Shown here: positions 12,595-43,406 of the stretch, piece after piece
How positions within the stretch are numbered: the first letter of the stretch is position 1
Layout: every line of letters starts with the position of its first letter
Source of the DNA: a virus
DNA length: 53,592 nt
Virus record (IMG/VR): IMGVR_UViG_3300043420_001594
Coordinates: 1-53,592 of that record
Reading direction: 5' to 3' (one strand)
Program-made: the position numbers and the translations under genes
Notes under the pieces: generated by a model
Database searches by the model: none
What the model saw: only the letters and a program-made list of their open reading frames with translations
Told to the model about the DNA's origin: nothing

Positions 12595-12790
12595 TGTCCT
12601 TCTCCTTGTTGGTGGCGCGCCCCAATGCTGCGATTTGGGCGCGGCTGACGTTCAGGTCAAGGTGAGGTTCTTCGATGCGGGCGGGTCCCCTACCAGAAGC
12701 GACCTTTTCCAAGGCCTCCTCTTCGGTCGCGCACTCCCCGCTCTCCAGCAACTTCTTGACCGCCGCGTAATCGATTCCGTACTTCTCCAT
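12587..12790 (-). CDS. Small helical protein, 67 aa
   Basis: The ATG at 12790 has GAGGTG 6 bases upstream and lies 9 bases after the polymerase stop. The protein starts MEKYGIDYAAVKKLLESGEC and continues with a helix (TEEEALEKVASG). The N-terminal 40 residues look like a small three-helix domain similar in size to UBA-type or SAP-type folds. Its stop overlaps the recA-like start. A longer frame upstream (12808) would overlap the polymerase and has no ribosome site. Function unknown. Confidence 0.6.
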   Translation of the reverse strand: MEKYGIDYAAVKKLLESGECATEEEALEKVASGRGPARIEEPHLDLNVSRAQIAALGRATNKEKDNG

Positions 12791-12798
12791 ACAGCACC

Positions 12799-14736: not shown

Positions 14737-14753
14737 AAGGATGAGGGTCAGCA

Positions 14754-14780
14754 GCGGGGGCCCCCACGTGGGACCCCCGC
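14754..14780. terminator. Strong hairpin between SSB candidate and polymerase genes
   Basis: GCGGGGG pairs with CCCCCGC, and an inner palindrome CCCACGTGGG lies between them. It sits in the 60-base gap between the stop of the 396-aa gene and the polymerase start. No T-run follows on the minus strand, so it may be an attenuator, RNA-processing site or barrier that lowers polymerase expression rather than a full terminator. Confidence 0.6.
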
Positions 14781-14796
14781 CACCAACCAGCCGCTG

Positions 14797-18388: not shown

Positions 18389-18405
18389 GCAACACCTCCA
18401 TAATT

Positions 18406-18418
18406 ATTAGCCACTAAT
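18406..18418. repeat. Dispersed 13-mer site F
   Basis: ATTAGCCACTAAT, in the 34-base gap just upstream of the DnaB-like helicase gene, where it could act as an operator. Confidence 0.55.
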
Positions 18419-18422
18419 ACCC

Positions 18423-18701
18423 TCAGATATCCGTGCCTCCTGAACCCAAATACTCCCGCCGGGGCGAGAGTGGCTGATCGGCCGAGCCCATCTTGCCGGC
18501 CACCACGCCCTCGATCGCTTCGATCAGGCGTTTGGCCAGATCGGCCACTTCGGGATGGTCCTCCAGCCCTGACAACTGGGCCATCCCGAAGCGCCGACCT
18601 TCCAACATGAACCCCACCTCAGCCGACACGGCACCCAGGGAGTTGACGGTGATGGCGTACGCATCAACCCCGTCGATCCTGCACAGGCTGAGCGGACGCA
18701 T
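18423..18701 (-). CDS. Hypothetical protein, 92 aa
   Basis: The ATG at 18701 has AAGGAG 6 bases upstream, overlapping the end of the preceding gene. The N-terminal half is beta-rich (SLCRIDGVDAYAITVNSLG, AVSAEVGFMLEGRRFG). A helix follows (VADLAKRLIEAIEGVVAGKM), and the end is Gly/Ser-rich. No motif was recognised. It is the last gene before the helicase and may be co-translated with the small genes upstream. Confidence 0.6.
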   Translation of the reverse strand: MRPLSLCRIDGVDAYAITVNSLGAVSAEVGFMLEGRRFGMAQLSGLEDHPEVADLAKRLIEAIEGVVAGKMGSADQPLSPRREYLGSGGTDI

Positions 18702-18703
18702 CG

Positions 18704-19135
18704 CTACTCCTTGTCAAAGTAGGCTGCGTACAGCCGGGTTCGGATGTCCTCGTCGTGGCCCAGCAGAGATTTGCCGATGCTGTCGCGGGAAGCCTCCCAC
18801 ACCAGTTCGTACGCAACCTGCTGCGCCATCTTGATGCTCTCTTCATCGGGGGTGCAGGGGAGACTCACACTGGAGTGGACCTCCACGCTGTACGGGATCT
18901 TGTCCCACGTCCCCGTCCCATAGTAGGCGGCGTCCGATACCTTGGTCGCCACGCTCATGTTGACGCGGGCAGCCTGCTCGACCGGCACCGTCAACAACGC
19001 TTCCAACACCTGCTTTCTCGATTCCATTCGGTGGACCTGTTGTGCCTCTTCACGAGACTTTGGATCGGTTGAAGACCGCGTAACCGTGACGACGAGTGAC
19101 GCGTCACCCGCCGCCACCGACACACGCCCGCTCAC
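18704..19135 (-). CDS. Hypothetical protein, 143 aa
   Basis: A GTG start at 19135 overlaps the stop of the upstream gene (GTGA). The protein starts with strands (GRVSVAAGDASLVVTVTR), then a charged helix (SREEAQQVHRMESRKQVLEA) and two beta segments ending in SVEVHSSVSLPCTPDEE. A long C-terminal helix includes AQQVAYELVWEAS. No family was recognised. The compact two-layer alpha/beta pattern and location among replication genes suggest an accessory factor. Confidence 0.6.
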   Translation of the reverse strand: MSGRVSVAAGDASLVVTVTRSSTDPKSREEAQQVHRMESRKQVLEALLTVPVEQAARVNMSVATKVSDAAYYGTGTWDKIPYSVEVHSSVSLPCTPDEESIKMAQQVAYELVWEASRDSIGKSLLGHDEDIRTRLYAAYFDKE

Positions 19136-19533
19136 AGCTTCACCGTGATCTCTTTGGGGCCGTCCACCTTGGGCCTACCCTCCACGATCGTCTTGGCGGA
19201 TGCCACCTGATCGCCCGGGATCGTGCCGTCCATCACCAACCGCTCCAGCGTCTCGGCGTCGATCTTCTTGATGACGCCGGGGATCAGTTTGACGCTATCC
19301 GGAAGTTTGCCGGCCTGGTAGTCCACCGATTGCGGAGCCCCGCTGCGGCGAAACGGACCCATCGTGAGGGGTCCGGCTGGAACCTGGCTGCGCACATGTT
19401 CCTTCGCTTCCGCCAAGCTGGCGTTGTACTGATCGGAAAGTTCGAAGAAACGGTTGAACACCAGCGGATTGTCGCTGATGTGGTCCATCAGGTCTTGACG
19501 GGCACGCTCGAAAGTAACGATCTTATCAGCCAT
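19132..19533 (-). CDS. Hypothetical protein, 133 aa
   Basis: The ATG at 19533 has GGAG 8 bases upstream and overlaps the end of the UDG-like gene. The N-terminal 50 residues are helical (TFERARQDLMDHISDN, VFNRFFELSDQYNASLAEAK). The C-terminal half has more Pro, Gly and Val (VDYQAGKLPDSVKLIPGVIK). No motif was recognised. Coupled overlaps on both sides place it in the replication-repair operon. Confidence 0.6.
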   Translation of the reverse strand: MADKIVTFERARQDLMDHISDNPLVFNRFFELSDQYNASLAEAKEHVRSQVPAGPLTMGPFRRSGAPQSVDYQAGKLPDSVKLIPGVIKKIDAETLERLVMDGTIPGDQVASAKTIVEGRPKVDGPKEITVKL

Positions 19534-20179
19534 TTTGCTTCTCCATACGGATTAGTTGGTCCGCCAACCTGACGGCAGACCAAATGTGTTGGCACGTCGA
19601 GTCCCAAGGACTGGTCGGATCGGATGGATCCGTCTTGGACAAGTCCTGTAGGGAGTTCGTCAACATGACGGGAACTGGGTAATCGACGTACATACCCTTC
19701 ATATATGCTTCTACCAATGAACCCGCCGTGTTCTGCACGTTCGGGGCCTTCGTGGGCATCAGGCTCTTGGCCGCTGCCTGTCCACACGCCACCGCCACCT
19801 TGGGCTGGATGGCGTGGATCTCTGCATGTACGCGATTGCTACACTTCACCACCTCCGGGTTTTTGGCCAACGGGACAACCTGCTCACCGTACAGTTCCCG
19901 CGGGTCGCGAGGAGGGCATCCAGTTACAGGGGTGTAGTAGAACTCCCCTGGATGCCGGCCCAAGTACATCATCAGCAGGTCAAGAACTCGGCTGTGGCCG
20001 GTGCCAGGAAACGTCCCACCACCAACCTCGCCAGGGTCTAGCCGATCCAGCACGAATACGACCGAGGCGTTCGGATTACCCGAACCCCTGATCGAGCCGC
20101 GCCGGTTCCTGTAGAGAGAGCACTCTTTACACGCCGCGTACTTGGCGTGGATGCTCCAGACGTCACCTGAGATCAACAT
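19526..20179 (-). CDS. Uracil-DNA glycosylase-fold Fe-S protein (family 4-like), 217 aa
   Basis: The ATG at 20179 overlaps the end of the helicase gene by 17 bases. The layout is that of family 4 UDG: CKEC (C17, C20), then GNPNASVVFVLDRLDPGEVG, FPGTGHSRVLDLLMMYLG, TPVTGCPPRDPREL (C88), C113 and PKVAVACGQAAAKSLM. The four Cys would hold a 4Fe-4S cluster. The usual GEAPG loop is here DRLDPGE, and the usual C-terminal HPS motif is not evident. It may therefore recognise uracil or other lesions differently, or have only a structural role. Confidence 0.75.
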   Translation of the reverse strand: MLISGDVWSIHAKYAACKECSLYRNRRGSIRGSGNPNASVVFVLDRLDPGEVGGGTFPGTGHSRVLDLLMMYLGRHPGEFYYTPVTGCPPRDPRELYGEQVVPLAKNPEVVKCSNRVHAEIHAIQPKVAVACGQAAAKSLMPTKAPNVQNTAGSLVEAYMKGMYVDYPVPVMLTNSLQDLSKTDPSDPTSPWDSTCQHIWSAVRLADQLIRMEKQNG

Positions 20180-21587
20180 ACCGCATACCGTGCTGCGCTA
20201 TCGCGCTCTTGAGGCTCCTGCACATACCCCAGCACGGACCGATACCCTTGTCCTCCAGCACCACCACTAGCGGCTCCTTCTTACCGGGATACCGCCTCTC
20301 GATCCTTCCCTTTCCTTGTTGGAAAGCCCCCCACGCTTTGAAGGGCGTGGCGAATATGACGGTATCGAGCGCCGCAACGTCGAGACCTTCCCGGGCTACC
20401 TGAAATGTCGCAAAAGATACGTTGGATTGCCGGATTATCTGGGCTCGTTCCGCACCCGGAGTCTTACCCGAGATGGCCCCAGAGGTCAAGTTTTTTGCAC
20501 CACCGACAGGGCCGAACAAATTCTTCAGTGCTTCTGGGTGCTCGGCACTGTGGGTCAGGACCAGAACCTTGCGTCCGCTCTCGGCTGCCTCCAAAGCCAT
20601 CGAGATGATTATGTTATTTCGTGCGGGCAGGGCTGCCAAGTAGGCGTAGAGCTTGCCGACCGAGAACTGCCCGGTCCGGTCCATGATCTGCCAGGCGTCG
20701 GGCGGCAACTTAAAGGGCGTGGTCTTGAAGTAGGTGGTGGCGGACAGGTCTCCCTGCAGGTCCGAGTGAAAGATCTCACCCACGTGTGCGTAGTAGGCGC
20801 CCTCAAGCCCGTCCTCCCGCTCTGCTGTCGCGGTCAGTCCGTACCTGCCCCCGAAGAACAGGGGGGCGGTCTTTAGGAACGTGGTGGCGGACAGGTGGTG
20901 GACCTCATCGAACACCACGGTCCCGAACCGTTTGCGGATCTCCATCGGTATCTGTTCGGCTCGGTTGGCCAGGGTGTGGATCATGGCCAGGACGAGCGGG
21001 CGATCCCACTGCGCCTTGGTTCCCTGAACGACCCCAATCTCCTGCTCCGTCAGATTCAGGAACTGGGTGGCCCGTTCCGCCCATTGGTCGATCAGGCCCT
21101 CATTGTTGACGATCACGATGGCGGGGAACCGCCGATCCGCGATCTTCTTGAGGGCCAGCACGGTCTTCCCCTTACCGCAAGCCAAGTTGAGGATCCCGTA
21201 CCGCGCGGGCTGGAGCTTGGACCACGCCGCCTGTTGCTCGGCGTTACGGAGGTTGATCTGATCCCCGAAGTCAACGTCGTCCCACGTAGGACTCAGGTCC
21301 ACCTCCTGCCAGCTCTGAACCTTCTCCCTCCAGTCCGCGTGAAGGTGGCGGCTCATTACCAAGTGATACCGCTCCTGCCGAGCCAACTGTATCTGCATGA
21401 CCGCACCAGTCCGGTTGTTGACGGTCTGGACGACCGCCGTGCGCAGCACAGCCTGCGGGTTCGCCACCAGCTCGAGCGGTATCCACATGTCCGCTGACAG
21501 GACGGTCTGCCCGGCGGCCCCCTCACCTCCGTCCTGCTCTGGTACGTAGATTAAGGGAACGTTACTTTTTGGCGTTACCGTCGCCAT
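20163..21587 (-). CDS. SF2 DNA helicase, UvsW-like, 474 aa
   Basis: The ATG at 21587 has GGAGG 5 bases upstream. After an N-terminal 120-residue domain the SF2 motifs appear in order: LACGKGKT (I, 135-142), DEVH (II, 227-230), LTATAER (III), the second RecA domain with KVLVLTHSAEH, FATFQVAREGLDV (V) and QQGKGRIERRYPGK (VI). T4 UvsW and related helicases branch-migrate junctions and unwind R-loops, moving replication from origin-driven to recombination-driven. This gene sits in an operon with RecA-like, RusA and Hjc-like genes, which fits. Confidence 0.88.
   Translation of the reverse strand: MATVTPKSNVPLIYVPEQDGGEGAAGQTVLSADMWIPLELVANPQAVLRTAVVQTVNNRTGAVMQIQLARQERYHLVMSRHLHADWREKVQSWQEVDLSPTWDDVDFGDQINLRNAEQQAAWSKLQPARYGILNLACGKGKTVLALKKIADRRFPAIVIVNNEGLIDQWAERATQFLNLTEQEIGVVQGTKAQWDRPLVLAMIHTLANRAEQIPMEIRKRFGTVVFDEVHHLSATTFLKTAPLFFGGRYGLTATAEREDGLEGAYYAHVGEIFHSDLQGDLSATTYFKTTPFKLPPDAWQIMDRTGQFSVGKLYAYLAALPARNNIIISMALEAAESGRKVLVLTHSAEHPEALKNLFGPVGGAKNLTSGAISGKTPGAERAQIIRQSNVSFATFQVAREGLDVAALDTVIFATPFKAWGAFQQGKGRIERRYPGKKEPLVVVLEDKGIGPCWGMCRSLKSAIAQHGMRYVDLR
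21355..21367 (-). repeat. Dispersed 13-mer site G (reverse)
   Basis: Plus strand reads ATTACCAAGTGAT, so the minus strand is ATCACTTGGTAAT. It is the only asymmetric ATCA-type copy in a minus-strand gene, and it points along that gene. Confidence 0.5.
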
Positions 21588-25648: not shown

Positions 25649-25840
25649 ACCCATCAGCATGATGGACCTGTCACCACACCGATCGCACTTCCCCATCTGG
25701 TAGTGCGTCGATGGAATGTCATAATGGCGGACGCATTTTGGGCACACCCAGAGGGCTGTCCACGACTCGAAGTGGCGGCAGTCCCGGCAGTCCTTGGGAT
25801 CCGCGCACCACCCGTCCTTCAGACTACATCGGGTCCTCAT
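25610..25840 (-). CDS. Small zinc-ribbon protein on opposite strand, 76 aa
   Basis: The ATG at 25840 shares bases with the stop of the 35-aa gene (TAATG). Eight Cys appear in pairs: CSLKDGWCADPKDCRDC near the N-terminus, then VCPKC and KCDRCGD, the last two typical of a zinc ribbon. The end overlaps the portal 3' end by 39 bases, tail to tail. It lies in a two-gene minus-strand unit driven by promoter cassette P3, embedded between portal and RNA polymerase genes. A regulator of transcription or an RNA polymerase-binding factor is an attractive guess, not shown. Confidence 0.7.
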   Translation of the reverse strand: MRTRCSLKDGWCADPKDCRDCRHFESWTALWVCPKCVRHYDIPSTHYQMGKCDRCGDRSIMLMGLNLRPTGSSPGG

Positions 25841-25947
25841 TACTTTTCCGGGTCGAGCGCGTCCTCGACGGCGTCATCAAATTCGCCCAGGCTTGACATG
25901 CCGCAGCCGGGGCTCCACTCGACTATCGCCTCAACCCTGTTCTTCAT
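25840..25947 (-). CDS. Small acidic protein, 35 aa
   Basis: The ATG at 25947 has AGGAGGAG 6-7 bases upstream, a very strong site. It encodes MKNRVEAIVEWSPGCGMSSL followed by an acidic tail (GEFDDAVEDALDPEK), and its stop overlaps the zinc-ribbon start. First gene behind promoter cassette P3. Too short for family assignment. Confidence 0.6.
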   Translation of the reverse strand: MKNRVEAIVEWSPGCGMSSLGEFDDAVEDALDPEK

Positions 25948-25996
25948 GGTAGACTCCTCCTGGAGAGCGGATAAAGTTGGATAGACGTGTGCTCTC

Positions 25997-26033
25997 CATC
26001 ATTCTTATACCCATGCAGAGACCCGAACTTGCC
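25997..26033 (-). promoter_or_regulatory. Promoter cassette P3
   Basis: Minus strand: GGCAAGTTCGG, then GGGTATAAGAATGATGG with the same spacing as P1 and P2. The leader again has TATCCAAC and TTTATCC elements and ends in AGGAGGAG. It drives the 35-aa and zinc-ribbon genes, away from the RNA polymerase gene, whose own ribosome site overlaps the upstream end. Confidence 0.6.
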
Positions 26034-26044
26034 AGGAGGCCAGG

Positions 26045-29000
26045 ATGTCAGTTCTAGACCCCGAGAGAGTCATGCGGACTCTCGAAGACCGGGTGGCGGA
26101 CAGGATCAAGTCGTTCTTTCCACTGAAGGGTAAGAAGCAGACGTTGGTTGTTCGCGACGTCTATGCCGGCAAGGATGTGGACGTCGATGATATCCACGAA
26201 CAGAAGAAGGCTCGCCTACGGGGGAAGACCTGGTCGACCGGCGTGTACGGAAACATCGATCTGGTCGACAACGCTACCGGAAAGGTCGTGGACAGCGCCG
26301 ACAGCATCAAACTGCTCAGCCTGCCCAAGATCACGCGTCGGTACAGCTACATCATCGAAGGCAGTGAGTATCAGGCCGACAACCAGTGGCGGTTGAAGTC
26401 TGGCGTGTACGCCCGCGAGAAAGCCAACGGGGAACTGGAGACCCAGTTCAATCTGGCGAAGGGGCGTGGATTCCGCATGGGGTTCGACCCGCAGAAGCGG
26501 CGATTCCAGCTGTCGTACGGCACCGCCAATATCCCGCTCCTCCCAGTCCTCCAGGCCATGGGTGTGCCGGACGAGCAGATCCGTAAGTCGTGGGGCGATC
26601 AAGTCTACGCGGCCGCGGTGGCTCAGAAGTCCAAGGGCCAGCTTGTGAAGTTGGCCAGGGCGTTGGAGCCCTACAAGTCCGTGGACACTGACGCGGACGC
26701 CATTCCGATTATTCGGGATTCGTACGGTGCCACTGTCCTGAACCCCGACACCACCGCAATCACGCTCGGTAAGCCGCACGACAAAGTGACGGGCGACGCC
26801 CTCTTATCATCGGCTAATAAGTTGCTGGGGATCAGCCGGGGTGAGCAGGAGGTCGATAACCGAGACTCCCTGCGCTTCAAAGAACTGTGGTCGATTGAGG
26901 ATCACCTGCCCGAGCGCATCCAAAACTCCGCTAAGCGGATCCGTCTCAAGATGATGAACAACCTGGACCGAAAGAGTCAGGTCCGTCAGATCGTCACCAA
27001 CGACGTGTTCAACGTTCCGGTCAAGGCGTTCTTCACCAGCACGTCGCTGTCCCAGCAGACCAGCCAGGTCAACCCGATCGATATGATCGGCGGATTCCTC
27101 CGCACCACCATCATGGGCCCTGGTGGTATTTCGAACGAGAATGCGGTCGGCATGGACGCCAAGATGATCGACCCCAGCTTCCTGGGATTCGTGGATCCGG
27201 TCCACACCCCTGAGGGCGAGAAGTCGGGTGTGACGGGGCACCTGTCGCTGGGTGTCTCTAAGCGTGGTGTGGAACCGACGATTCGCGTGTGGGATACGGC
27301 GGCGAAGCAGTACACCGACAAGACTCCGACCGAATTGGCGCTCAAGAACGTGGCGTTCGCGGACCAGTACCTGTTTGCGAAGGGCAAGGAACCTCAGATC
27401 CGCGGTAAGGTCGCGACCGTCATTCCTCCGGGTGGTTCGGATCCCGTGGTGGTGGACCCTAAGGAAGTGGGCTACATCCTGCAGTCACCTAAGACCGTCT
27501 TCTCCATGACCGCCAATCTGGTGCCTTTCTTGGCGTCCGACCAGGCCAACCGCGCCGGTATGGCGACCCGTCACATGGAGCAGGCCATCTCCCTAAAGAA
27601 CCGGGAGGAACCTCTCGTCCAGACAGTCAGCGGCAACCCAAACGAGCGCTACGGTACGTGGGAGAAGATCATGGGGTCGTTGAACTCCCATGCCGCCCCC
27701 GTATCTGGGAAGGTCGAGTCCATCACGTCTGACTCCATCACGTTGGTGGACGCGGACAAGAAGAAGCACGTCGTGCAGCTGTACGACAACTTTCCGCTCA
27801 ACGACGCCAAGGCCTTCATCTCCAGTACCCCCACCATCAAGGTGGGGGACACGGTGGAGAAGGGGCAGTTGGTGGCCGACACCAACTTCACCAAGGGTGG
27901 GGCGCTCTCGATGGGCATGAATCTCCGTATCGGATTCCTACCCTACAAGGGGTTGGTGTTCGAGGACGGCATCGTGATCAGCGAGACCGGGTCCAGGAAA
28001 CTGACCAGCGAGCACCTCCATAAGTCCAGAGCCTATCTGGACAAGGAGATGTACCTGGGTCTCAAGAAGTTCCGCGCCAACTATCCGGGCGTCGTGACGG
28101 ACGAGAACGCCAAGAAATTGGACGAGGACGGCGTCATCAAGAAGGGGGAGATCGTCAACCCCGGCGACACCATCATGACGATCCTGCAGAAGTCGGATCC
28201 TTCGAGTGAGCAGCTCATGCTCAGGGGCATCCACAAGGCCTTGGTACGCCCGTGGAAGAACAAATCCGTCACATGGGACAAGCCCTACTCAGGCGTCGTG
28301 ACGGACGTGGTGCGTAACGGCAAGGAAGTGCAGGCCTTCATCAAGACTGAGGAGCCCGCCGATATTGGCGATAAACTTTCTGGCCGCCACGGCAACAAAG
28401 GTGTCATCACGGCCGTGATCCCGGACGAGGAGATGCCGAAGGACAAGGACGGCAACCCTCTCGAGATCATCGTGAACCCTTCGGGCGTTCCGGGCCGCAT
28501 CAACTTGGGGCAGGTGTTGGAGACCAGCCTCGCCAAAGTGGCGGACAAGAGGGGCGAGCCCTACGCGGTCGACAACTTTCAGCCCGTCGACGGCAAGAAG
28601 ATCATTCAGGTCAAAGGCCACTGGCGCACCATCAAGAAGGAGACGGGCGAAGTGACGCGCACGTGGGTTGACCCGCATGAGCGTGAGGTCGGTTACCACG
28701 AGCTCGTCAAACAGGAACTCCAGGCCAACAAGGTCAGCGAAACGGAAGAACTGTTTGACGGCGTGACCGGCAAGAGCCTTGGGCAGGTTCTGGTCGGCAA
28801 ACAGTACATCATCAAGCTGATGCACCAGATCGACAAGAAGTTGTCGGCCCGGTCACACGGCTACGGCAACGAGTACGACCAGAATCTCCAGCCCAAGGGC
28901 GGTGGCAAGGCGGGCGCACAGCGATTTGGTGAGCTCGGCTACTACGCCATGCTGGCGCACGGGTCCGTCCACAACCTCCGCGAAGCCGCCACTTACAAGG

Positions 29001-32000
29001 GCGACAAGCAGCAGGATGAGGTGTGGACGGCCCTACAGGCTGGTGAGCCCCTGCCCACCCCGAAACCATCGTTTGCGTACCAGAAGTTCCTAGCCTACCT
29101 GAATGCGGTGGGCGTGAACGTCGACAAAGAGGGCAACGAGCTAATCGTCAAGCCCTTCACAGATGCCCTGATCCTCGCCCAGTCCAACGGAGAACTCACC
29201 GATGCCTCCAAGGTGGTGCGTGGTAAGGACCTGAAGCCCGAGAAGGGTGGTCTGTTCGACGAGCAGGTAACGGGCGGTCCCGGTGGAAAGAACTGGTCCC
29301 ACATCGTGCTGGCGGACCGGATCCCCAATCCTCTATTCGAGAAGGCGATCGTGTCACTGCTTGGCCTGCGGGAAGCGGATTATGACGCGGTAATATCTGG
29401 AGAGAAGGGGTACACCAAGGACGGGAAGCTGGTTCCGGCCGAAGAGGCCGACAAGACCGGTCCCTCCGCCATCGTGGAGCGGCTCAAGAAGGTGAAGGTC
29501 GACGAAGAGTTGGCCTCGGCGCTGGAGGCCGTGAAGACGGCGCGACGCACAGACCTCGACCGCGCCAACAAGAAGGTCAAGTACCTGCGGGCCCTCAAGA
29601 ACACAGAGCTGTCGGCTGACTTGGCCTACACGCTCGGAAACCTGCCGGTCCTCCCCCCGGTGTTTCGCCCCGTCAGCACGATGGAGGGCGGTGACCTCAA
29701 CATCGACGGCCTCAACATGCTGTACCGGGACGTCGCCCTGCTGAACGGTAAGCTCAAGGAAGCGGAAGGTGTGTTGCCCGACGAGGCGGTCGCCTCTCTG
29801 CGCAAGGACCTGTACGACGCAGTGGACGCGCTGATGGGCACGCGCCCCGACAGCGAAGGGGGCAAGACCGAGGACGGGCAACCTAAACCGCCCGGTATCC
29901 TAACGATCCTGTCGGGACGCTCCAGCCCCAAGACCAGCTACTTTCACGACAAGCTGATGGACCGGCCGCAAGACCTGTCCATGCGCTCTGTCATCGTTCC
30001 GGACATGACGCTGGGTCTCGACGAGGTAGGCATCCCACGCAAGGGCGCGATGAAGGTGTACCGCCCCTTCGTGGTTCGTGAGCTGGTACGGATGGGATAC
30101 ACGCCGCTCCAGGCTCGGGAGGAGATGGAGAAGAAGACCGCGCTGGCCAACAGGGCGTTGGATGTGGTGGTGTCGCAACGACCCGTTCTGTTCAAGCGGG
30201 ACCCCGTCCTCCACAAGTTCGGGATCATGGCGTTTCGCCCACGTCTGCATGATGAGCTGGCCATCCACATCCACCCGCTGGTGACCGGTGGCTTTAACGC
30301 CGACTTTGACGGCGACGCCATGGCGATCTTCGTGCCGGTATCCAATGAGGCGGTGCAGGAAGCCTACAAGATGCTTCCGTCCAACAACCTCTACAACGCC
30401 GCGACCGGCAAGGTGATGTACCAGCCCTCCATGGAGAGCCAGCTCGGTCTCTACCTGATAACGCAGTTCGGTAAGGAGACGGGCAAGAAGTATGGGTCGG
30501 ACAAGCAGCTGATGGACGATGTGAGGGCCGGCAAGACCCTCATGACGGACGTGGTGACGGTCGGTGGCAAGAAGACGACGGCCGGCCGGCTCTCTTTCTA
30601 CAACACGCTGCCCGAGTCTGTCCGCGACGACTCCTACCTCACGGATCCCACGCAGGTGATGGGCGACAAAAACCTTCAGAAGGTAATGCGCAAGATCGCG
30701 ACCAAGCAGCCGGGAGAGTTCGCCAACGTGATCGACAAGATCAAGGACCTGGGCTTCAATCACTCCTACGACATCGGCTTCTCTTTCGACCTCAACGATT
30801 TCGACACCCTGCGCAACATCCGTCAGGACGCCCTCAAGAAGGCGGAGGCGGAGGTACTGAAGATCAGGGCATCCAAGATGACGCCTGCTCAGCAGGAGGC
30901 CAAGATCGTGGATGCGTACACCCAGGCCACCAAGGACATGAGCGTGGAGGCCAAGAAGGTGCTGGGTAGTAAAGGCAACAAGCTGTTCGCGATGAACCAG
31001 GCGGGCGTCAAGCCGAGTTGGGCGCAGCTCCAGCAGATGGTGCTGGCGCCCATGCTGCTCCAGAACGCCAAGGGCCGGACCATCCCGGTCCCCGTCACCA
31101 AGTCGTACGCCGAAGGGCTCGATACCTCCGGCTACTGGGTCGCCAGCTCCGGCGCCCGCAAGGGGTTGGTCGAGAAGGTGCTGCAGGTCCAGGAACCGGG
31201 CGCACTGTCCAAGCAGATCGTCAACACGGTGGTGCCGTACGTCGTCACCAATCCTGACTGCGGCACCAAGAGCGGTATCGCGTTGGGCGTGGACGACTCG
31301 GACCTGGTGGACCGGTACGTCGCCAAGGACACGGCTCTGGAGAAAGGCGGGGTCATTCCGGCCGGAACCCTCATCACCCCGTCGGTGGTGGCGAACCTGA
31401 AGGCCAACAAGATCACCAGAGTCGTGGCCCGCTCGCCCATGAAGTGCGAGTCACCGAAGGGGTTGTGTTCAAAATGCTACGGTCTGTCGGACGGTGGCCA
31501 GCCGTTGGCGGTCGGCACCAACATCGGCGTGCTGGCTGGCCAGGCCATCGGTGAGCGCGGCACTCAGCTGTCGATGAAGTCATTCCACACCGGTGGTTTG
31601 GCTGGGTCGGGGAGCAGCGTGGTGGGTGGTTTGGAACGGATCTCCGAGCTCTTGAAAATGCCGAAGATCCTGCCCAACGCCGCCACCATCTCGCACGCCA
31701 ACGGAGACGTCACCAAGATCGAGAAGAGTCCGGTAGGTGGTTGGGACGTATCAGTCGGTAATGAGACTCACTACGTTCCTGCCAGTCGCTCACTCCTGGT
31801 TCGGAAGGGCGAGAAGGTCAAGAAGGGTCAGCAACTCTCCAGCGGATCGATCGATCCGCGCGAACTGCTCGAACAAACCAACATGGAGACGGTGCAGCGC
31901 TACATCTCCGACGAGATCCACAAGGTCTACGCGGCCGAAGGTATCAAGCGTCGTAACGTCGAGGTGGTGACCAAGGCGCTGACCAATTTGGGGCGCGTAG

Positions 32001-32311
32001 AAGACCCGGGCGATAACGACCAGTTTATCCGCGGCGACTTCATCTCGCTGAACCACGCCCAGTCGCTGAACCGGGAGAAGCAGCACGCCAACCCGATTCA
32101 AGTCTCGCCGGTCCTGCGAGGAACCGAGACCTTGGCGCTCGACCAGTCTGATGACTGGATGGCCCGCATGCAGTATCGTAAGCTCAAGGAGACGCTGACC
32201 CGCGCCGCCAACGAGAATTGGAAATCCAACATTCACGGCGTCCACCCCACCCCGGCCATCGCGTACGGGGCGGAATTCGGCCGCAACACGACGGGCGAGG
32301 GTCCGTACTGA
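26045..32311 (+). CDS. Single-chain fused beta/beta-prime RNA polymerase, 2088 aa
   Basis: The ATG at 26045 has AGGAGG 6 bases upstream. Residues 1-1020 match the RpoB order: the rifampicin-region analogue LSQQTSQVNPIDMIGG at about 335-350, VDPVHTPEGEKSGV, the catalytic lysines in GDKLSGRHGNKG (K777, K785) and the C-terminal GGKAGAQRFGELGYYAMLAHG. From about 1040 the chain matches RpoC: LPVLPPVFRP, NADFDGDAM (D1420, D1422, D1424, the Mg-binding triad), the bridge helix region SSGARKGL, four Cys of the C-terminal zinc site (C1739, C1801, C1808, C1811) and the trigger loop SMKSFHTGG (M1844-H1848). No stop separates the halves. The beta-prime N-terminal zinc domain is missing: GLFDEQVTGGPGGKNWSHI runs directly on. 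No alpha, omega or sigma gene is in the window. Probably transcribes phage genes independently of, or alongside, host polymerase. Confidence 0.95.
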   Translation: MSVLDPERVMRTLEDRVADRIKSFFPLKGKKQTLVVRDVYAGKDVDVDDIHEQKKARLRGKTWSTGVYGNIDLVDNATGKVVDSADSIKLLSLPKITRRYSYIIEGSEYQADNQWRLKSGVYAREKANGELETQFNLAKGRGFRMGFDPQKRRFQLSYGTANIPLLPVLQAMGVPDEQIRKSWGDQVYAAAVAQKSKGQLVKLARALEPYKSVDTDADAIPIIRDSYGATVLNPDTTAITLGKPHDKVTGDALLSSANKLLGISRGEQEVDNRDSLRFKELWSIEDHLPERIQNSAKRIRLKMMNNLDRKSQVRQIVTNDVFNVPVKAFFTSTSLSQQTSQVNPIDMIGGFLRTTIMGPGGISNENAVGMDAKMIDPSFLGFVDPVHTPEGEKSGVTGHLSLGVSKRGVEPTIRVWDTAAKQYTDKTPTELALKNVAFADQYLFAKGKEPQIRGKVATVIPPGGSDPVVVDPKEVGYILQSPKTVFSMTANLVPFLASDQANRAGMATRHMEQAISLKNREEPLVQTVSGNPNERYGTWEKIMGSLNSHAAPVSGKVESITSDSITLVDADKKKHVVQLYDNFPLNDAKAFISSTPTIKVGDTVEKGQLVADTNFTKGGALSMGMNLRIGFLPYKGLVFEDGIVISETGSRKLTSEHLHKSRAYLDKEMYLGLKKFRANYPGVVTDENAKKLDEDGVIKKGEIVNPGDTIMTILQKSDPSSEQLMLRGIHKALVRPWKNKSVTWDKPYSGVVTDVVRNGKEVQAFIKTEEPADIGDKLSGRHGNKGVITAVIPDEEMPKDKDGNPLEIIVNPSGVPGRINLGQVLETSLAKVADKRGEPYAVDNFQPVDGKKIIQVKGHWRTIKKETGEVTRTWVDPHEREVGYHELVKQELQANKVSETEELFDGVTGKSLGQVLVGKQYIIKLMHQIDKKLSARSHGYGNEYDQNLQPKGGGKAGAQRFGELGYYAMLAHGSVHNLREAATYKGDKQQDEVWTALQAGEPLPTPKPSFAYQKFLAYLNAVGVNVDKEGNELIVKPFTDALILAQSNGELTDASKVVRGKDLKPEKGGLFDEQVTGGPGGKNWSHIVLADRIPNPLFEKAIVSLLGLREADYDAVISGEKGYTKDGKLVPAEEADKTGPSAIVERLKKVKVDEELASALEAVKTARRTDLDRANKKVKYLRALKNTELSADLAYTLGNLPVLPPVFRPVSTMEGGDLNIDGLNMLYRDVALLNGKLKEAEGVLPDEAVASLRKDLYDAVDALMGTRPDSEGGKTEDGQPKPPGILTILSGRSSPKTSYFHDKLMDRPQDLSMRSVIVPDMTLGLDEVGIPRKGAMKVYRPFVVRELVRMGYTPLQAREEMEKKTALANRALDVVVSQRPVLFKRDPVLHKFGIMAFRPRLHDELAIHIHPLVTGGFNADFDGDAMAIFVPVSNEAVQEAYKMLPSNNLYNAATGKVMYQPSMESQLGLYLITQFGKETGKKYGSDKQLMDDVRAGKTLMTDVVTVGGKKTTAGRLSFYNTLPESVRDDSYLTDPTQVMGDKNLQKVMRKIATKQPGEFANVIDKIKDLGFNHSYDIGFSFDLNDFDTLRNIRQDALKKAEAEVLKIRASKMTPAQQEAKIVDAYTQATKDMSVEAKKVLGSKGNKLFAMNQAGVKPSWAQLQQMVLAPMLLQNAKGRTIPVPVTKSYAEGLDTSGYWVASSGARKGLVEKVLQVQEPGALSKQIVNTVVPYVVTNPDCGTKSGIALGVDDSDLVDRYVAKDTALEKGGVIPAGTLITPSVVANLKANKITRVVARSPMKCESPKGLCSKCYGLSDGGQPLAVGTNIGVLAGQAIGERGTQLSMKSFHTGGLAGSGSSVVGGLERISELLKMPKILPNAATISHANGDVTKIEKSPVGGWDVSVGNETHYVPASRSLLVRKGEKVKKGQQLSSGSIDPRELLEQTNMETVQRYISDEIHKVYAAEGIKRRNVEVVTKALTNLGRVEDPGDNDQFIRGDFISLNHAQSLNREKQHANPIQVSPVLRGTETLALDQSDDWMARMQYRKLKETLTRAANENWKSNIHGVHPTPAIAYGAEFGRNTTGEGPY
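26806..26818 (+). repeat. Dispersed 13-mer site I
   Basis: ATCATCGGCTAAT inside the RNA polymerase gene. Confidence 0.5.
29382..29394 (+). repeat. Dispersed 13-mer site J (ATGA variant)
   Basis: ATGACGCGGTAAT inside the RNA polymerase gene; differs from the consensus at the third base. Confidence 0.35.
31750..31762 (+). repeat. Dispersed 13-mer site K
   Basis: ATCAGTCGGTAAT inside the RNA polymerase gene. A one-mismatch relative (TTCAGAAGGTAAT) lies at 30675-30687. Confidence 0.5.
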
Positions 32312-32321
32312 TCGGGAGTTC

Positions 32322-33440
32322 ATGCGGATCGAGCTTGCTACAGTTCAGGCCGTGAACGTGCGGGACTACACGGTCGACGTGTTGACCGAGCAGAATAGCC
32401 ATCCGTTGATCGGAGTCCCCCTCCTGACCCCGCTCAACCATCCGGACCACATGGGAGGGATCAACTTCCTCCCAGAAGTCGGGTCCAGCTGCTACATCTG
32501 TTTCCCGGACGACGGAACCTACTTTGTTCTGGGGTTCTTCATCAAGGCCGGTGTGGTGGATCCGCTGGTCAGCCCTGGCCCCAATTTCACGGCAAAACGC
32601 GAACCTCTGGAGCCGGGCGACATCTGCATGGCCACGGTGGACGGGAATCAGGTTGTGCTGCGGAGAGGTGGGCTGGTTCAGATCGGCTCCAACGGGCTCT
32701 GTCAACGGCTCTACATCCCGGGCCGCAACATCATCCGCGACTACTTCCAGCGATACCACGCCATCAGTCCGATCGGAGAGATCGACTGGGGTCACGCGCA
32801 ACTCGTCAAAGAAGAGAACCTGGCGGACGGCAACACGTCCGTGGCGGTCCGCTACAATATCCGCCGGATCCTCCAGGAGGACGTGTCGACCAAACCCTAC
32901 ACGCTGGAGATTCGTTTCGGGGTGCTGACAGAGAAGAATCTGGACAGTGATACGGACGAGAAGAACCACCTGTTCGCTAACCCCGGATTCAAGGCGCAGG
33001 AAGGTACCGGAGTATCGAATAGTGCGGAAGGAACTCTCAGCTTCACGATCTTCGACCACAACGACAACGCCAACAAAGTGGTGTACGCGTTCCAGTTGAG
33101 TCGGCAAGGCGACATGTTTCTGATGTCGGACGGACACGTCCACATGGAGGTAGCGCAGACGCTGTACGTGTACGCAGGGGATCACATCACGATCGAAACT
33201 GCGAATAACAAGAATATCGTCCTTAAGGTAGGGGGAGGTGGAAAACTCTACCTGGGTAGTGGGTCTGCCTCCGAAGACGCGATATTAGGGAACCAACTAC
33301 GCACCCAGTTAAACGCGCTTATCGATACGTTCAATAGCCACACCCACGGAACTGGCGTTGGGCCCAGCGGTGTTCCCGCCCCGCAGGCTTCCAGCATCAC
33401 TACCGCCGTCCTATCCACGCACGTCAAGGTAGCGGGGTAG
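32322..33440 (+). CDS. Baseplate spike protein, gpV/gp5-like, 372 aa
   Basis: The ATG at 32322 has GGGAG 5 bases upstream, 10 bases after the RNA polymerase stop. The N-terminal OB-like region (VQAVNVRDYTVDVLTEQNSH, GSSCYICFPDDGTYFVLGFF) and the C-terminal part (NALIDTFNSHTHGTGVGPSG, then LSTHVKVAG) fit phage baseplate assembly/spike proteins, where trimers form the membrane-piercing tip. The middle (about 120-250) is extra and beta-rich. The segment VHMEVAQTLYVYAGDHITIE looks like a spike beta-helix. This implies a contractile-type tail. Confidence 0.8.
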   Translation: MRIELATVQAVNVRDYTVDVLTEQNSHPLIGVPLLTPLNHPDHMGGINFLPEVGSSCYICFPDDGTYFVLGFFIKAGVVDPLVSPGPNFTAKREPLEPGDICMATVDGNQVVLRRGGLVQIGSNGLCQRLYIPGRNIIRDYFQRYHAISPIGEIDWGHAQLVKEENLADGNTSVAVRYNIRRILQEDVSTKPYTLEIRFGVLTEKNLDSDTDEKNHLFANPGFKAQEGTGVSNSAEGTLSFTIFDHNDNANKVVYAFQLSRQGDMFLMSDGHVHMEVAQTLYVYAGDHITIETANNKNIVLKVGGGGKLYLGSGSASEDAILGNQLRTQLNALIDTFNSHTHGTGVGPSGVPAPQASSITTAVLSTHVKVAG

Positions 33441-37921: not shown

Positions 37922-39721
37922 ATGAGTCTGCTGCGCTACATCATGAAGCATGCACAGGTGACGCCTTCGGCCGCCAAGCCGGAGGACAAGCCAGCTGTCG
38001 AGCGCGGCAATAACGTCCCCACCATGAAGCCCGACTTCAAGCCGATGGCCCATCAGGAGGCCGCGGTACAAAAATTATTCGATAATAAGGGGCGGCTGAT
38101 CCTAGCCCATCAGATGGGATCCGGTAAGACGCTGACCTCGATCTACGGGTTCGAGAAGATGCGCCAGTTCGGCAAGGCCAATAAGGCGATCGTCGTGGTG
38201 CCGGCGGGTCTCCGGGAAAACTTCGCAAGAAGCGGTGTGGAAAAGGCGACCAACTCTTCGTTTCAGGTTATCGGATCGTCCGAAGAAAAGAACCGGATGA
38301 GCAACTATGTTCGTCCGGACGAGGTCGACCCCAACAAAACCTACACGATCGTCTCGTACGACCAGATGAGACGCGACCCCGTAGGTCTGATGCAGCGAAC
38401 TGGTGCCGACACCATCATTGCGGACGAGTTCCACAAGACCCGCAACGACCGGTCTCAGGTGTACCGGTCGATGATGCAGGCCCGACAATACGCCACCAAC
38501 TTCATCGGAGTCACCGCATCCCTGATCAATAACCGCCCGGATGAAGTTGCCAAGCTCCTGAACTTATCAGAGGGAGGACCTCCAGTGTCTCCCCGAGACT
38601 TCATGAACCGGTACACCCGGACGGTCGGCACCGCGGAGGGGTTCGGGGGCAGCAAGAAGCGGGTCATCGGGATCAACAATCCTGAAGAATTCGCCATGAA
38701 GGTGGTGCCACGGGTCGACTACTTCGAAACCGGAGACATTCCTGGCGCTGCAATGCCCAGAAAGGACGTCAAGAATGTGTACGTCCCGATGTCTAAGGAG
38801 CAGTACCACCTGTACAGGCTGGCGCTCAATAAGCTGGGGCCCGTGCAAGAGTACATCACCCGGCGCGATCCCAACATCACGCTGAAGGACGCGGACAAAC
38901 TGTTTACCCAGTTGACGCAAGCACGGCAGATCAGCAACTCCATCGCCATGGGTCGCAAGGACGTGTCGGTAGACCAGGCGGCTGAAAGGACTCCGAAGGT
39001 CCGCAAGGTGCTGCAGGATACGGCCCAACACCTGCAGGACCGCCCCGACAACTCCGTGGTCCTGTACAGCAACCTGATCCGCGGTGGCGTGGACGTGCTC
39101 TCGGCTGGACTCAAGAAGGCCGGTATCCCGCATGCGCTCTTTATTGGCGCGGGTACTGAGTTGGGGGACGGAAAGGTCACCAACGTCAGTCGCTCGCAGG
39201 GAGTCGAAGACTTCAAAGCCGGTAAGGTCAAGGTGATCGTGTTGTCGGGCGCCGGCGCAGAGGGGCTGGATCTCAAAAACGCCACTGCCTTCTATTCGCT
39301 TGACGGTCACTTCAATCCTGAAAGGATCATGCAGGCAGAGGCACGGGCTCGGCGTCTGGGCGGGCAGGCCCACCGTCCTCCAGAACAGCGGGTTGTTGAC
39401 GTTCGCCGATATCAGTCGGTGGTCCCGGCGTCAGAGCAACCCGGTGTATTCGGAAAGATGCTGGGTAAGAAGACCCCACAAACCACTGACGAGTGGGCCT
39501 ACAACGTTGCTGGACGAAAGTTTCAGACAGCTCGCCAGTTCTATGACGTGATGCACAAGCCCACCAAGTACATTCGCAAAGAGTACTACACCAGGCGGGA
39601 CGGGACCCGAGCGATCCGCTACACCTACGCCCAGCAAGTTAGTCAGCCGAGAGGCCTATTTAGGAAGTTGTTCGGTCCAAAGGACACAGCCACCGCACCC
39701 GTTAAGCCGCTTGTTGGGTAA
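37922..39721 (+). CDS. SNF2-type SF2 ATPase in the late operon, 599 aa
   Basis: The ATG at 37922 lies 5 bases after the preceding gene. SF2 motifs are clear: HQMGSGKT (63-70), the DEFH box (168-171), GVTASL, then the second RecA domain with NSVVLYSNLIRGGVDVL and LSGAGAEGLDLKNAT, and the closing motif MQAEARARRLG. The DEFH replaces the usual DEAH. The N-terminus MSLLRYIMKHAQVTPS has the short amphipathic motif shared by several late proteins here. SNF2 enzymes translocate on duplex DNA without unwinding. Location among structural genes suggests virion packaging or a DNA-ejection or packaging role; this is inference. Confidence 0.85.
   Translation: MSLLRYIMKHAQVTPSAAKPEDKPAVERGNNVPTMKPDFKPMAHQEAAVQKLFDNKGRLILAHQMGSGKTLTSIYGFEKMRQFGKANKAIVVVPAGLRENFARSGVEKATNSSFQVIGSSEEKNRMSNYVRPDEVDPNKTYTIVSYDQMRRDPVGLMQRTGADTIIADEFHKTRNDRSQVYRSMMQARQYATNFIGVTASLINNRPDEVAKLLNLSEGGPPVSPRDFMNRYTRTVGTAEGFGGSKKRVIGINNPEEFAMKVVPRVDYFETGDIPGAAMPRKDVKNVYVPMSKEQYHLYRLALNKLGPVQEYITRRDPNITLKDADKLFTQLTQARQISNSIAMGRKDVSVDQAAERTPKVRKVLQDTAQHLQDRPDNSVVLYSNLIRGGVDVLSAGLKKAGIPHALFIGAGTELGDGKVTNVSRSQGVEDFKAGKVKVIVLSGAGAEGLDLKNATAFYSLDGHFNPERIMQAEARARRLGGQAHRPPEQRVVDVRRYQSVVPASEQPGVFGKMLGKKTPQTTDEWAYNVAGRKFQTARQFYDVMHKPTKYIRKEYYTRRDGTRAIRYTYAQQVSQPRGLFRKLFGPKDTATAPVKPLVG
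38074..38086 (+). repeat. Dispersed 13-mer site N
   Basis: ATTATTCGATAAT inside the SNF2-type ATPase gene. Confidence 0.5.
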
Positions 39722-41537: not shown

Positions 41538-41710
41538 ACCGTCACGGTCCACTTCTGCACCTGCACCCGGGCACCCGGGATCATGTGTCGGACCAGCTGT
41601 TTGACCGACTCCTTTTCCGCGTGGGCGAGCGGCCACCTGATGTGTAGGATCAGGGTATCGCCTTGCTCCTCGTAACGATCCAGTGTATTGCCGAGGGCGC
41701 GGGACAGCAT
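41528..41710 (-). CDS. Lone antisense small protein, 60 aa
   Basis: This minus-strand frame (ATG at 41710) fills the 195-base gap between the Cys-module gene and terminase, where the plus strand has no gene. The product MLSRALGNTLDRYEEQGDTL continues ILHIRWPLAHAEKES and ends QVQKWTVTVQS, a sensible beta-alpha-beta pattern. GGGG lies about 11 bases upstream; a TTG start at 41740 with GGGGGTGAA is an alternative. No promoter cassette of the P1-P3 type was found for it. Could be a shadow, but packing and composition favour a gene. Confidence 0.5.
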   Translation of the reverse strand: MLSRALGNTLDRYEEQGDTLILHIRWPLAHAEKESVKQLVRHMIPGARVQVQKWTVTVQS

Positions 41711-41732
41711 CGCCACGACCCCGGAGAAACGC

Positions 41733-43406
41733 GTGTTCAAAGTTCACCCCCGGCAAACCCAACAAGTATCCGCCGCATCCCTGGAACTCTTTCCGTCCGA
41801 GTTCACGAGCCACATCATGCGGATGCCGCATGAAGGGGCGCTGGCCCCATTCTCATTCACCGGTCGAGAGTACCTGATACCTGTCTACGATACACCGCAC
41901 CCGCGGGTGCTGCTGATGTTTGCGCGTCAGTCCGAGAAGTCAACAACCCTCGGCAACAAGATCTTGGCGCTGTCGTGCCTGCGTCACCACTTCAAGTCCC
42001 TATTCGTGAGTCCCTCACAACAGCAGACCGAGGTGTTTAGTCGTGACAAACTGTCGTCCCCGCTCAACCTGTCGGAAGACCTGCGCACGTTCTTGGACAA
42101 GAGCGCCAACAACGTGCTGTTCAAGCGGTTCATCACCGACTCCAGCGTGACGTTGAGGTACGCGTTTCTTCACGCCGACCGTACGCGCGGTATTCCGGCA
42201 GACGCGCTGTTCTTGGACGAGATCCAAGACATCTTGACGGACGTGATCCCGATCATCGAGGAGTGTATGTCGCACTCCCCCTACCAGCTCATGACGTATT
42301 CGGGCACCCCAAAATCACTCGATAATACGATCGCCTACTACTGGAACACCTTCTCGACCCAGAACGAGTGGATGATCCCGTGCGACCGGTGCGGTGGTGG
42401 TGACTACCGGCACTGGGACGTGATCGGTTACGACAACATCGGTCCTGAGGGACTGATCTGCAGTAGATGCAAGAAGGGTATCGACCCTCGGCATTCAGAT
42501 GCCCGGTGGGTATCGCAGAGGTCTGCGCGGTGGTTGCAAGCACCAGATGGAATTCCATTTGAGGGGTACCGGATCCCCCAGATCCTGACCAACTGGGTCA
42601 ACTGGCCCAAGGTCCTGGACAAGAAGAATCGATACGGCAAGGCACAGTTCTACAACGAGGTGCTGGCGCTACCGTACGACTCCGGCGACAAGCCCATCAA
42701 ACGGGAGACCCTGCTGGAACAGTGCAGCGGCATCTCGTTTGCGGATTCCGTCAACTTCTCGGGCAGATCAACCCTGTACATGGGAATCGACTGGGGCGGC
42801 ACCACCAACGCGGGGGGTGGTGAGGAGGGCGGCGTTAGGAAGTCCGCCCCCGCCAGCAGCTACACCGTGGTATCAATCGGCGGATATCTGGGCGGCAAGT
42901 TCCAGTACATCTACTTCCGGCGGTTCGAGGGTGAGGAGGCGGTCATGGACAACATGCTGCCCGTCATCATCCAGCTGGTAGATCGATACAAGATCTCGAT
43001 CATCGGTACCGACTACGGCGGTGGCCTCCACCCGAACGACCGTCTGATCCGACAGTTCGGTATCCGCCGTGTGGCTCGCTATCAGTACGTCAATACCCGC
43101 AAGATCTACTTCAACAAGGACCTGCACCACTGGATGGTCAACCGGACAGAAGCCCTCATGGCCCTCATCAACGCCATCAACCGTAAGGACGAGATCCGAT
43201 TCCCCACATTTAGTGACTGGGAATTCCCTTTTGCGCAGGACCTGCTGTCAGTCTTCACCGAGTACAACAGCTCCAACACCCAAATGATCATCACGAAGGC
43301 GCCGGGCTCCTCTGACGACACCATGCACTCCATGATGTACTGCTGGCTGGCCAGCATGATCGAGCACCCACGGCCCGACATTCTGGCTGCGGACCGAACT
43401 CACTAG
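41733..43406 (+). CDS. terL: Terminase large subunit, 557 aa
   Basis: A GTG start at 41733 has GGAG 7 bases upstream (an upstream TTG at 41688 lacks one). The ATPase has the P-loop ARQSEKST (64-71) and Walker B ALFLDEIQD (D162, E163). A zinc-ribbon insert CDRCGGG...CSRCKKG follows at about 215-245. The C-terminal RNase H-like nuclease has YMGIDWGGT (D353), IIGTDYGGG (D427) and a later Asp in SSDDTMHSMMY. TerL cuts concatemers and drives DNA into the prohead through the portal. The P-loop has Glu in place of the middle Gly, a known variation in terminases. No clear small terminase gene was recognised. Confidence 0.92.
   Translation: MFKVHPRQTQQVSAASLELFPSEFTSHIMRMPHEGALAPFSFTGREYLIPVYDTPHPRVLLMFARQSEKSTTLGNKILALSCLRHHFKSLFVSPSQQQTEVFSRDKLSSPLNLSEDLRTFLDKSANNVLFKRFITDSSVTLRYAFLHADRTRGIPADALFLDEIQDILTDVIPIIEECMSHSPYQLMTYSGTPKSLDNTIAYYWNTFSTQNEWMIPCDRCGGGDYRHWDVIGYDNIGPEGLICSRCKKGIDPRHSDARWVSQRSARWLQAPDGIPFEGYRIPQILTNWVNWPKVLDKKNRYGKAQFYNEVLALPYDSGDKPIKRETLLEQCSGISFADSVNFSGRSTLYMGIDWGGTTNAGGGEEGGVRKSAPASSYTVVSIGGYLGGKFQYIYFRRFEGEEAVMDNMLPVIIQLVDRYKISIIGTDYGGGLHPNDRLIRQFGIRRVARYQYVNTRKIYFNKDLHHWMVNRTEALMALINAINRKDEIRFPTFSDWEFPFAQDLLSVFTEYNSSNTQMIITKAPGSSDDTMHSMMYCWLASMIEHPRPDILAADRTH
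42314..42326 (+). repeat. Dispersed 13-mer site O
   Basis: ATCACTCGATAAT inside the terminase gene. Confidence 0.5.

What the first reader, a model, noticed from the sequence alone, without database searches (positions are those of the whole stretch)
26045..32311. Phage-encoded RNA polymerase with beta and beta-prime fused in one 2088-residue chain
The sequence shows one uninterrupted frame carrying RpoB landmarks (catalytic Lys 777 and 785) followed by RpoC landmarks (NADFDGD at 1418-1424, bridge helix, trigger loop SMKSFHTGG, four-Cys zinc site). Known phage multisubunit-type polymerases, such as those of phiKZ-like phages, are split into several genes and diverged; crAss-like single-chain enzymes keep little beyond DxDGD. 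Here the similarity to cellular enzymes is high along the whole length. Natural rpoB-rpoC fusions are known in Helicobacter and Wolbachia, but this lies between portal and baseplate genes.
Basis: partly seen in the sequence, partly recalled or inferred. Interest (0 to 1): 0.9.

Follow-up and report, generated by a model that had tools for sequence, protein, structure and literature searches.

The report
One-piece phage RNA polymerase
A large group of uncultured tailed phages carries a complete bacterial-type RNA-making enzyme whose two big halves, separate proteins in almost every cell, are joined into one chain by a tight conserved turn; it sits among the virus-particle genes and is probably injected into the host with the DNA.

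Summary
Confirmed. Window 26045-32311 is one intact 2088-codon frame that is homologous to bacterial RpoB and then RpoC from end to end (about 25-27% and 29-31% identity), with every catalytic residue present. It is not an assembly accident. I found 74 distinct full-length one-chain homologues in viral contigs, at 41-93% identity. Selection is purifying across the joint. In all 98 distinct sequences that cover the joint it has exactly the same length: a predicted beta-hairpin linking the last beta strand to the first beta' strand. AlphaFold models of both halves match bacterial beta and beta'. The clade branches outside all sampled bacteria and holds one RNAP per genome. No alpha or omega gene was detected. 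A dedicated sigma factor is present in 13 of 15 large relatives. The gene lies between portal and baseplate-like genes. The nearest cultured relatives, Salmonella phage Arash and Vibrio phage D69, carry the same fusion with the beta' C-half split off; in Arash the fused protein gave the most spectra in the virion proteome. Best reading: a single-chain, sigma-directed virion RNAP. Chemistry is near certain; virion packaging and early-gene use are inferred. It is a new variant of phage two-barrel RNAP.

The parts
26045..32311 (+). Single-chain beta-beta' RNA polymerase gene, 2088 aa
   Evidence: one frame in 74 distinct full-length homologues
26045..29131 (+). beta (RpoB-like) module, aa 1-1029
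   Evidence: AlphaFold pLDDT 84.7 / pTM 0.76; best PDB matches are bacterial beta, TM about 0.7
28373..28399 (+). catalytic lysines K777 and K785 (KLSGRHGNK) of the beta double-psi barrel
   Evidence: invariant in 30/30 phage and 24/24 other rows
29111..29164 (+). beta-beta' junction hairpin, aa 1023-1040 (GVNVDKEGNELIVKPFTD)
   Evidence: exactly 18 residues in 98/98 distinct sequences; strands 1024-1029 and 1032-1037 in both models; dN 0.098, dS 1.1 around it
29138..32308 (+). beta' (RpoC-like) module, aa 1032-2088; lacks the N-terminal zinc ribbon and the SI3 insert
   Evidence: AlphaFold of aa 906-2088 pLDDT 85.1 / pTM 0.82; bacterial beta' matches TM about 0.8, rmsd about 4 A; deletions seen
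29714..29830 (+). clamp coiled coil, aa 1224-1262 (NMLYRDV...AVDALMG region), sigma docking site in bacteria
   Evidence: aligned with Salmonella RpoC and conserved
30296..30316 (+). NADFDGD metal-binding motif, aa 1418-1424
   Evidence: ADxDGD in 30/30 phage rows
31259..31477 (+). four-Cys zinc site C1739, C1801, C1808, C1811
   Evidence: 30/30 phage rows
31550..31597 (+). trigger loop region GERGTQLSMKSFHTGG, aa 1836-1851
   Evidence: H1848 30/30 phage rows
23771..25648 (+). portal protein, directly upstream of the RNAP in the synteny block
   Evidence: PHROG portal E 3e-4; homologous to annotated Arash portal gp204 (277 bits) and found upstream of the RNAP in nearly all loci
32322..33440 (+). 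baseplate-like protein, directly downstream
   Evidence: weak PHROG baseplate hit, E 0.0055; position conserved in most loci
37922..39721 (+). SNF2-type helicase; relative of Arash virion helicase gp217; possible RNAP-recycling partner
   Evidence: Pfam SNF2 4e-19; Arash homologue 145 bits; gp217 has 1148 spectra in virions
41688..43406 (+). GpA-type terminase large subunit, a marker of this lineage
   Evidence: PF05876 E 8.5e-13; shared across the clade

Best explanation
The gene encodes a complete bacterial-type two-barrel RNA polymerase core in one polypeptide. The C-terminal strand of beta and the N-terminal strand of beta' are joined by a short, length-invariant hairpin turn, so the two halves fold as one crab claw. 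Covalent joining would take the place of the alpha-dimer assembly platform, since no alpha or omega gene was detected. A phage-encoded sigma factor of the Arash gp10 family is proposed to dock on the conserved beta' coiled coil and direct it to phage promoters. The enzyme is probably packaged in the virion with the sigma and an SNF2 helicase and injected with the DNA, to transcribe phage genes independently of host RNAP. Shown: the fusion, the catalytic residues, the predicted fold, conservation, the sigma gene in relatives, the missing alpha/omega hits and the structural-gene position. Inferred: virion packaging in this phage, sigma dependence, alpha independence and timing.
For: Single frame and domain order. 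74 distinct one-chain homologues. Junction of exactly 18 residues in 98/98 sequences. dN/dS about 0.05-0.1 along the gene and across the joint. All catalytic, zinc and trigger-loop His residues invariant in 30 phage rows. Both halves fold like bacterial beta and beta'. One RNAP per genome. No alpha hit over cut-off in 17 records and no omega in 14. Dedicated sigma in 13/15 relatives of 142 kb or more, plus Arash and D69. Portal-RNAP-baseplate-like synteny across the clade, with the portal upstream even in Arash and D69. In Arash virions, gp206 (beta + N-half of beta') gave the most spectra (3516), gp216 1210, sigma gp10 467, helicase gp217 1148 (PMC10585845).
Against: No experiment on this phage. 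The Arash virion proteome also contains enzymes unlikely to be structural (ribonucleotide reductase, RNA ligases), and its authors allow carry-over. The window is a fragment and holds no sigma itself. Sigma was not found in the basal relative G021 or in the 143 kb fragment G001. Absence of alpha rests on profile searches of records whose completeness is unknown, apart from the two cultured genomes. The whole chain exceeds the folding limit, so it was modelled as two overlapping fragments.
Confidence: 0.7

Rival explanations
1. Same single-chain enzyme, but a non-virion polymerase made after infection for middle/late genes and placed among structural genes only because it is co-transcribed with them; the Arash virion signal is carry-over.
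For: The gene lies inside an apparent late structural cluster. Arash virion samples also held many non-structural enzymes, and the authors themselves offer carry-over as an alternative.
Against: [quoted passage not shown] No second RNAP exists in these genomes to serve as a virion enzyme.
Confidence: 0.22
2. The fused chain recruits host alpha and omega and host sigma, acting as a phage version of host core enzyme.
For: Full-length bacterial-like fold; no phage alpha or omega detected.
Against: About 25-31% identity to any bacterial enzyme. A phage sigma accompanies it in most large genomes. Phage RNAPs without alpha are known in jumbo phages (PMC7598289).
Confidence: 0.1
3. Recent capture of a naturally fused rpoBC from a bacterium such as Helicobacter or Wolbachia.
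For: Same beta-then-beta' order. One bacterial MAG contig (L164) also shows an in-frame rpoBC fusion.
Against: The phage clade lies outside all sampled bacteria with 98-100 support, including under a mixture model, and its internal depth rivals that among bacterial phyla. The genome scan found no cellular relative above 31%.
Confidence: 0.03
4. Assembly or annotation artefact joining rpoB and rpoC.
For: None.
Against: Dozens of independent contigs with an identical joint length and purifying selection.
Confidence: 0.005

Closest known systems
Salmonella phage Arash gp206+gp216 and Vibrio phage D69/D181/D148 RNAPs
   Same: Beta fused to beta' through the same 18-residue joint; portal directly upstream; sister group in the tree; sigma of the same family; GpA-type terminase
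   Different: Their beta' C-terminal half is a separate gene, the Arash trigger loop is degenerate, and identity is only about 30-32%
mReC phages (Weinheimer and Aylward 2020, PMC7481178)
   Same: Phage RNAP close enough to cellular beta/beta' to align, branching outside bacteria
   Different: Described as two subunits, with T4-type Gp23 capsid and PF03237 terminase. The two-gene phages found here, including a contig from the same metagenome, have beta' before beta and form separate branches
phiKZ/AR9-type jumbo phage vRNAP and nvRNAP
   Same: Cellular-type catalytic core without alpha (PMC7598289)
   Different: Split into four or more chains, two RNAPs per phage, no sigma
crAss-like gp66, YonO, P23-45 gp64/gp96
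   Same: Two barrels in one polypeptide; P23-45 gp96 is virion-borne (PMC10770324)
   Different: Highly divergent, with extremely low sequence similarity to multisubunit enzymes; here every major beta and beta' domain is recognisable
Helicobacter and Wolbachia rpoBC fusions, and artificial E. coli fusions (from memory)
   Same: beta-beta' covalent fusion in the same order
   Different: Cellular, work with alpha and omega; the phage clade lies outside the sampled bacteria

Membership tests
Bacterial-type two-barrel (beta/beta') RNA polymerase | NADFDGD barrel, second barrel with two lysines, trigger loop and bridge helix, C-terminal zinc site | tested here: met
Bacterial-type two-barrel (beta/beta') RNA polymerase | overall beta and beta' folds | tested here: met
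Bacterial-type two-barrel (beta/beta') RNA polymerase | alpha and omega subunits encoded alongside | tested here: not met
   no hit over cut-off in 17 (alpha) and 14 (omega) records; the window itself is a fragment
Bacterial-type two-barrel (beta/beta') RNA polymerase | beta' N-terminal zinc ribbon | tested here: not met
   deleted, GLFDEQVTGGPGGKNWSHI
Arash/D69 fused-RNAP lineage | common clade, same joint, same upstream portal | tested here: met
Arash/D69 fused-RNAP lineage | beta' C-half as a separate gene | tested here: not met
   one chain here
mReC Caudovirales | beta and beta' as two genes | tested here: not met
mReC Caudovirales | Gp23-type major capsid protein (PF07068) | tested here: not met
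   0 of 14 records of this lineage against 2 of 6 two-gene records; incomplete records weaken this
mReC Caudovirales | PF03237 terminase | tested here: inconclusive
   PF05876 found instead in 13 records of the lineage; PF03237 not searched separately
phiKZ/AR9-type jumbo phage RNAP | RNAP in four or more pieces, two sets per genome | tested here: not met
   one chain, one set
crAss/YonO-type single-chain RNAP | similarity limited to the barrels | tested here: not met
   all major beta and beta' domains present
Virion RNAP | protein present in particles and injected | not testable with these tools
   only by analogy with the Arash proteome

The most novel reading that the evidence does not exclude
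An ancient viral lineage of RNA polymerase, branching outside known bacteria, that works as a one-polypeptide core without alpha or omega, is injected with its own sigma and an SNF2 recycling helicase, and has kept a bacterial-grade catalytic centre; the fusion is ancestral to the clade and was secondarily broken in Arash-like phages.
Probability: 0.45. Interest if true: 0.85.

Novelty: new variant of a known kind. Interest (0 to 1): 0.68.

Why it matters
How jumbo phage beta/beta' pieces stay together without alpha is an open question (PMC7598289). A natural single-chain core that still looks fully bacterial gives a direct way to test whether a covalent hairpin can replace the alpha platform. 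It would also be a compact recombinant bacterial-type RNAP made from one gene, a phylogenetic marker for a large unnamed phage lineage, and a likely case of sigma-directed virion transcription. It shows that Arash gp206/gp216, annotated as beta and beta', are in fact a beta-beta'N fusion plus a beta'C fragment.

Tried and rejected
Assembly artefact: rejected. Recent bacterial capture: rejected by trees. Identity with mReC: not supported. A second RNAP in the genome: none found. A 93-aa ORF between portal and RNAP as an omega-like partner: rejected; the + frame is not conserved, the opposite strand reads as a small zinc-ribbon protein, and it is unrelated to Arash gp205. Plasmid relatives: only ordinary bacterial rpoBC-like matches. 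Near-identity DNA search in the phage collection: no match. Literature for a described phage rpoBC fusion in the open-access library: none found; subscription papers and preprints were not searchable. Whether one-chain and two-gene phage RNAPs share a viral ancestor is unresolved (weak support). Archaea, Campylobacterota and Rickettsiales were not in the trees.

Full report
OBSERVATION. The frame at 26045-32311 (+) is open for 2088 codons. Pfam places Rpb2 domains 2, 3, 6, 7 and then Rpb1 domains 1-5 in order. Against Salmonella RpoB/RpoC and other bacteria the alignment runs end to end at about 25-27% (beta) and 29-31% (beta') identity. K777, K785, ADxDGD, the four zinc cysteines and the trigger-loop histidine are invariant in 30 phage sequences. 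Missing relative to E. coli-type enzymes are the lineage-specific beta inserts, the beta' N-terminal zinc ribbon and the SI3 insert.

NOT AN ARTEFACT. Scans of viral contigs returned 21, then 35, then 80 loci. Apart from fragments cut by contig ends and one contig with an in-frame TGA (L096), they carry one frame. After removing near-duplicates there are 74 distinct full-length one-chain homologues at 41-93% identity. Window against L013 gives dN about 0.02-0.10 and dS about 0.5-1.1 in every segment, including the joint.

THE JOINT. In 98 of 98 distinct sequences the stretch from Gly1023 to Asp1040 has exactly 18 residues (GVNVxKxGNxLxLxPxTD), although sequence identity there is low. Both AlphaFold fragments give strand 1024-1029, turn, strand 1032-1037, then a helix. 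So the last beta strand and the first beta' strand are closed into a hairpin, rather than joined by a flexible linker. Bacterial beta' residues upstream of the conserved ...S.GE... motif are largely replaced by this turn.

FOLD. aa 1-1100: pLDDT 84.7, pTM 0.76; the PDB matches are bacterial beta, TM about 0.7 with high rmsd, which I take to be domain motions. aa 906-2088: pLDDT 85.1, pTM 0.82; the matches are bacterial beta', TM about 0.8 and rmsd about 4 A.

EVOLUTION. A concatenated beta+beta' tree puts the one-chain phages plus Arash/D69 in one clade (support 98-100) outside 22 bacteria from several phyla, which are themselves one side of a branch (100). The mixture model agrees. The basal member L258 (160 kb contig, 27% identity) is also one chain, so fusion before the Arash-type break is the simpler history, though the root is not inferred. 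Arash, D69 and relatives L249 and L280 end the fused chain just after the beta' catalytic barrel, the same place where cyanobacterial and jumbo-phage beta' is split (PMC7598289). A different set of phages has two genes in the order beta' then beta; these have Gp23-type capsids in 2 of 6 records and form other branches. One comes from the metagenome that gave published mReC representatives. Whether the two phage groups share a viral ancestor is unresolved. A scan of genome contigs found only cellular rpoBC at 31% identity or less.

PARTNERS AND PLACE. One RNAP per genome. No alpha hit over cut-off and no omega. A sigma family typified by Arash gp10 occurs in 13 of 15 large one-chain records, in one smaller contig, and in Arash and D69; it is not in the window, which is a fragment. 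The gene order helicase(-) / two genes / portal / RNAP / baseplate-like / ... / terminase is conserved in most loci, and the portal precedes the RNAP even in Arash, D69 and L258. In Arash virions gp206 gave the most spectra (3516); gp216, sigma gp10 and SNF2-like helicase gp217 gave 1210, 467 and 1148; the authors note possible carry-over (PMC10585845). The window's SNF2 helicase (37922-39721) is a relative of gp217.

MECHANISM. Most likely this is an alpha-free single-chain core, directed by its own sigma, delivered from the virion and working independently of the host enzyme. My estimates: chemistry about 0.97; single chain in vivo about 0.9; phage sigma use about 0.75; virion delivery about 0.65. 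The rifampicin pocket residues have changed (position 531 Thr in 30/30 phage rows, 526 never His, 572 mostly Thr/Ser), so drug-insensitive phage transcription is predicted.

NOVELTY. Phage single-chain two-barrel enzymes (crAss, YonO, P23-45) and phage two-subunit enzymes (mReC) are known, and cellular beta-beta' fusions are known from memory. I found no description of a phage beta-beta' fusion of bacterial grade in the open-access library. Subscription papers and preprints could not be checked. Verdict: new variant of a known kind.

Noticed in passing
L020, L015, L061, L125, L145, L278, L286: Intein-like in-frame insertions of about 340-510 aa in the RNAP of relatives at six or so conserved sites: after HTPE (390), in GDK (about 778), after HGNKG (about 788), near 985, after NADFDGD (1425) and within the trigger loop FH|TGG (1848). 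LAGLIDADG/homing domains were found in L015 and L020; L020 carries three insertions. The window copy has none.
   Followed up: partly
L003 14902-19476 and 24250-26070; L002: Arash gp206 and gp216 are annotated as beta and beta' but are really a beta+beta'N fusion and a beta'C piece; the Arash trigger loop lacks FHTGG.
   Followed up: yes
L250, L253, L285, L301, L313, L234, L238: A second phage RNAP class with adjacent genes in the reverse order, beta' then beta; in Cobetia phage Carin-5 a sigma gene lies directly upstream.
   Followed up: partly
L096 12080-12082; L259 1028-1030; L257 809-811: Single in-frame TGA codons interrupt otherwise continuous RNAP chains: sequencing error, readthrough or recoding.
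   Followed up: no
L164 3-4895: A bacterial MAG contig with rpoB and rpoC in one open frame and only a short joint, apparently an independent cellular fusion.
   Followed up: no
window 25649-26044, minus strand: The gap between portal and RNAP reads on the minus strand as a small zinc-ribbon-like protein (MRTRCSLKDGWCADPKDCRDCRHFESW...CPKC...CDRCGD) preceded by a 35-aa frame.
   Followed up: no
L005: In Vibrio phage D181 the RNAP gene is broken further, with a homing endonuclease gene between the pieces.
   Followed up: no
plasmid records NZ_CP033217.1, NZ_CP149721.1 and others: About a dozen Clostridioides difficile plasmid records of roughly 100-150 kb carry rpoB- and rpoC-like genes.
   Followed up: no
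phages collection, OR84xxxx records and AFYI01000006: Several records filed as phages hold ordinary bacterial rpoBC and look like host contamination.
   Followed up: no
window 9919-21587, minus strand: Replication block: Cas4-like nuclease, RecA-like, family A DNA polymerase, primase, DnaB-like helicase, uracil-DNA glycosylase-like and a second helicase.
   Followed up: no
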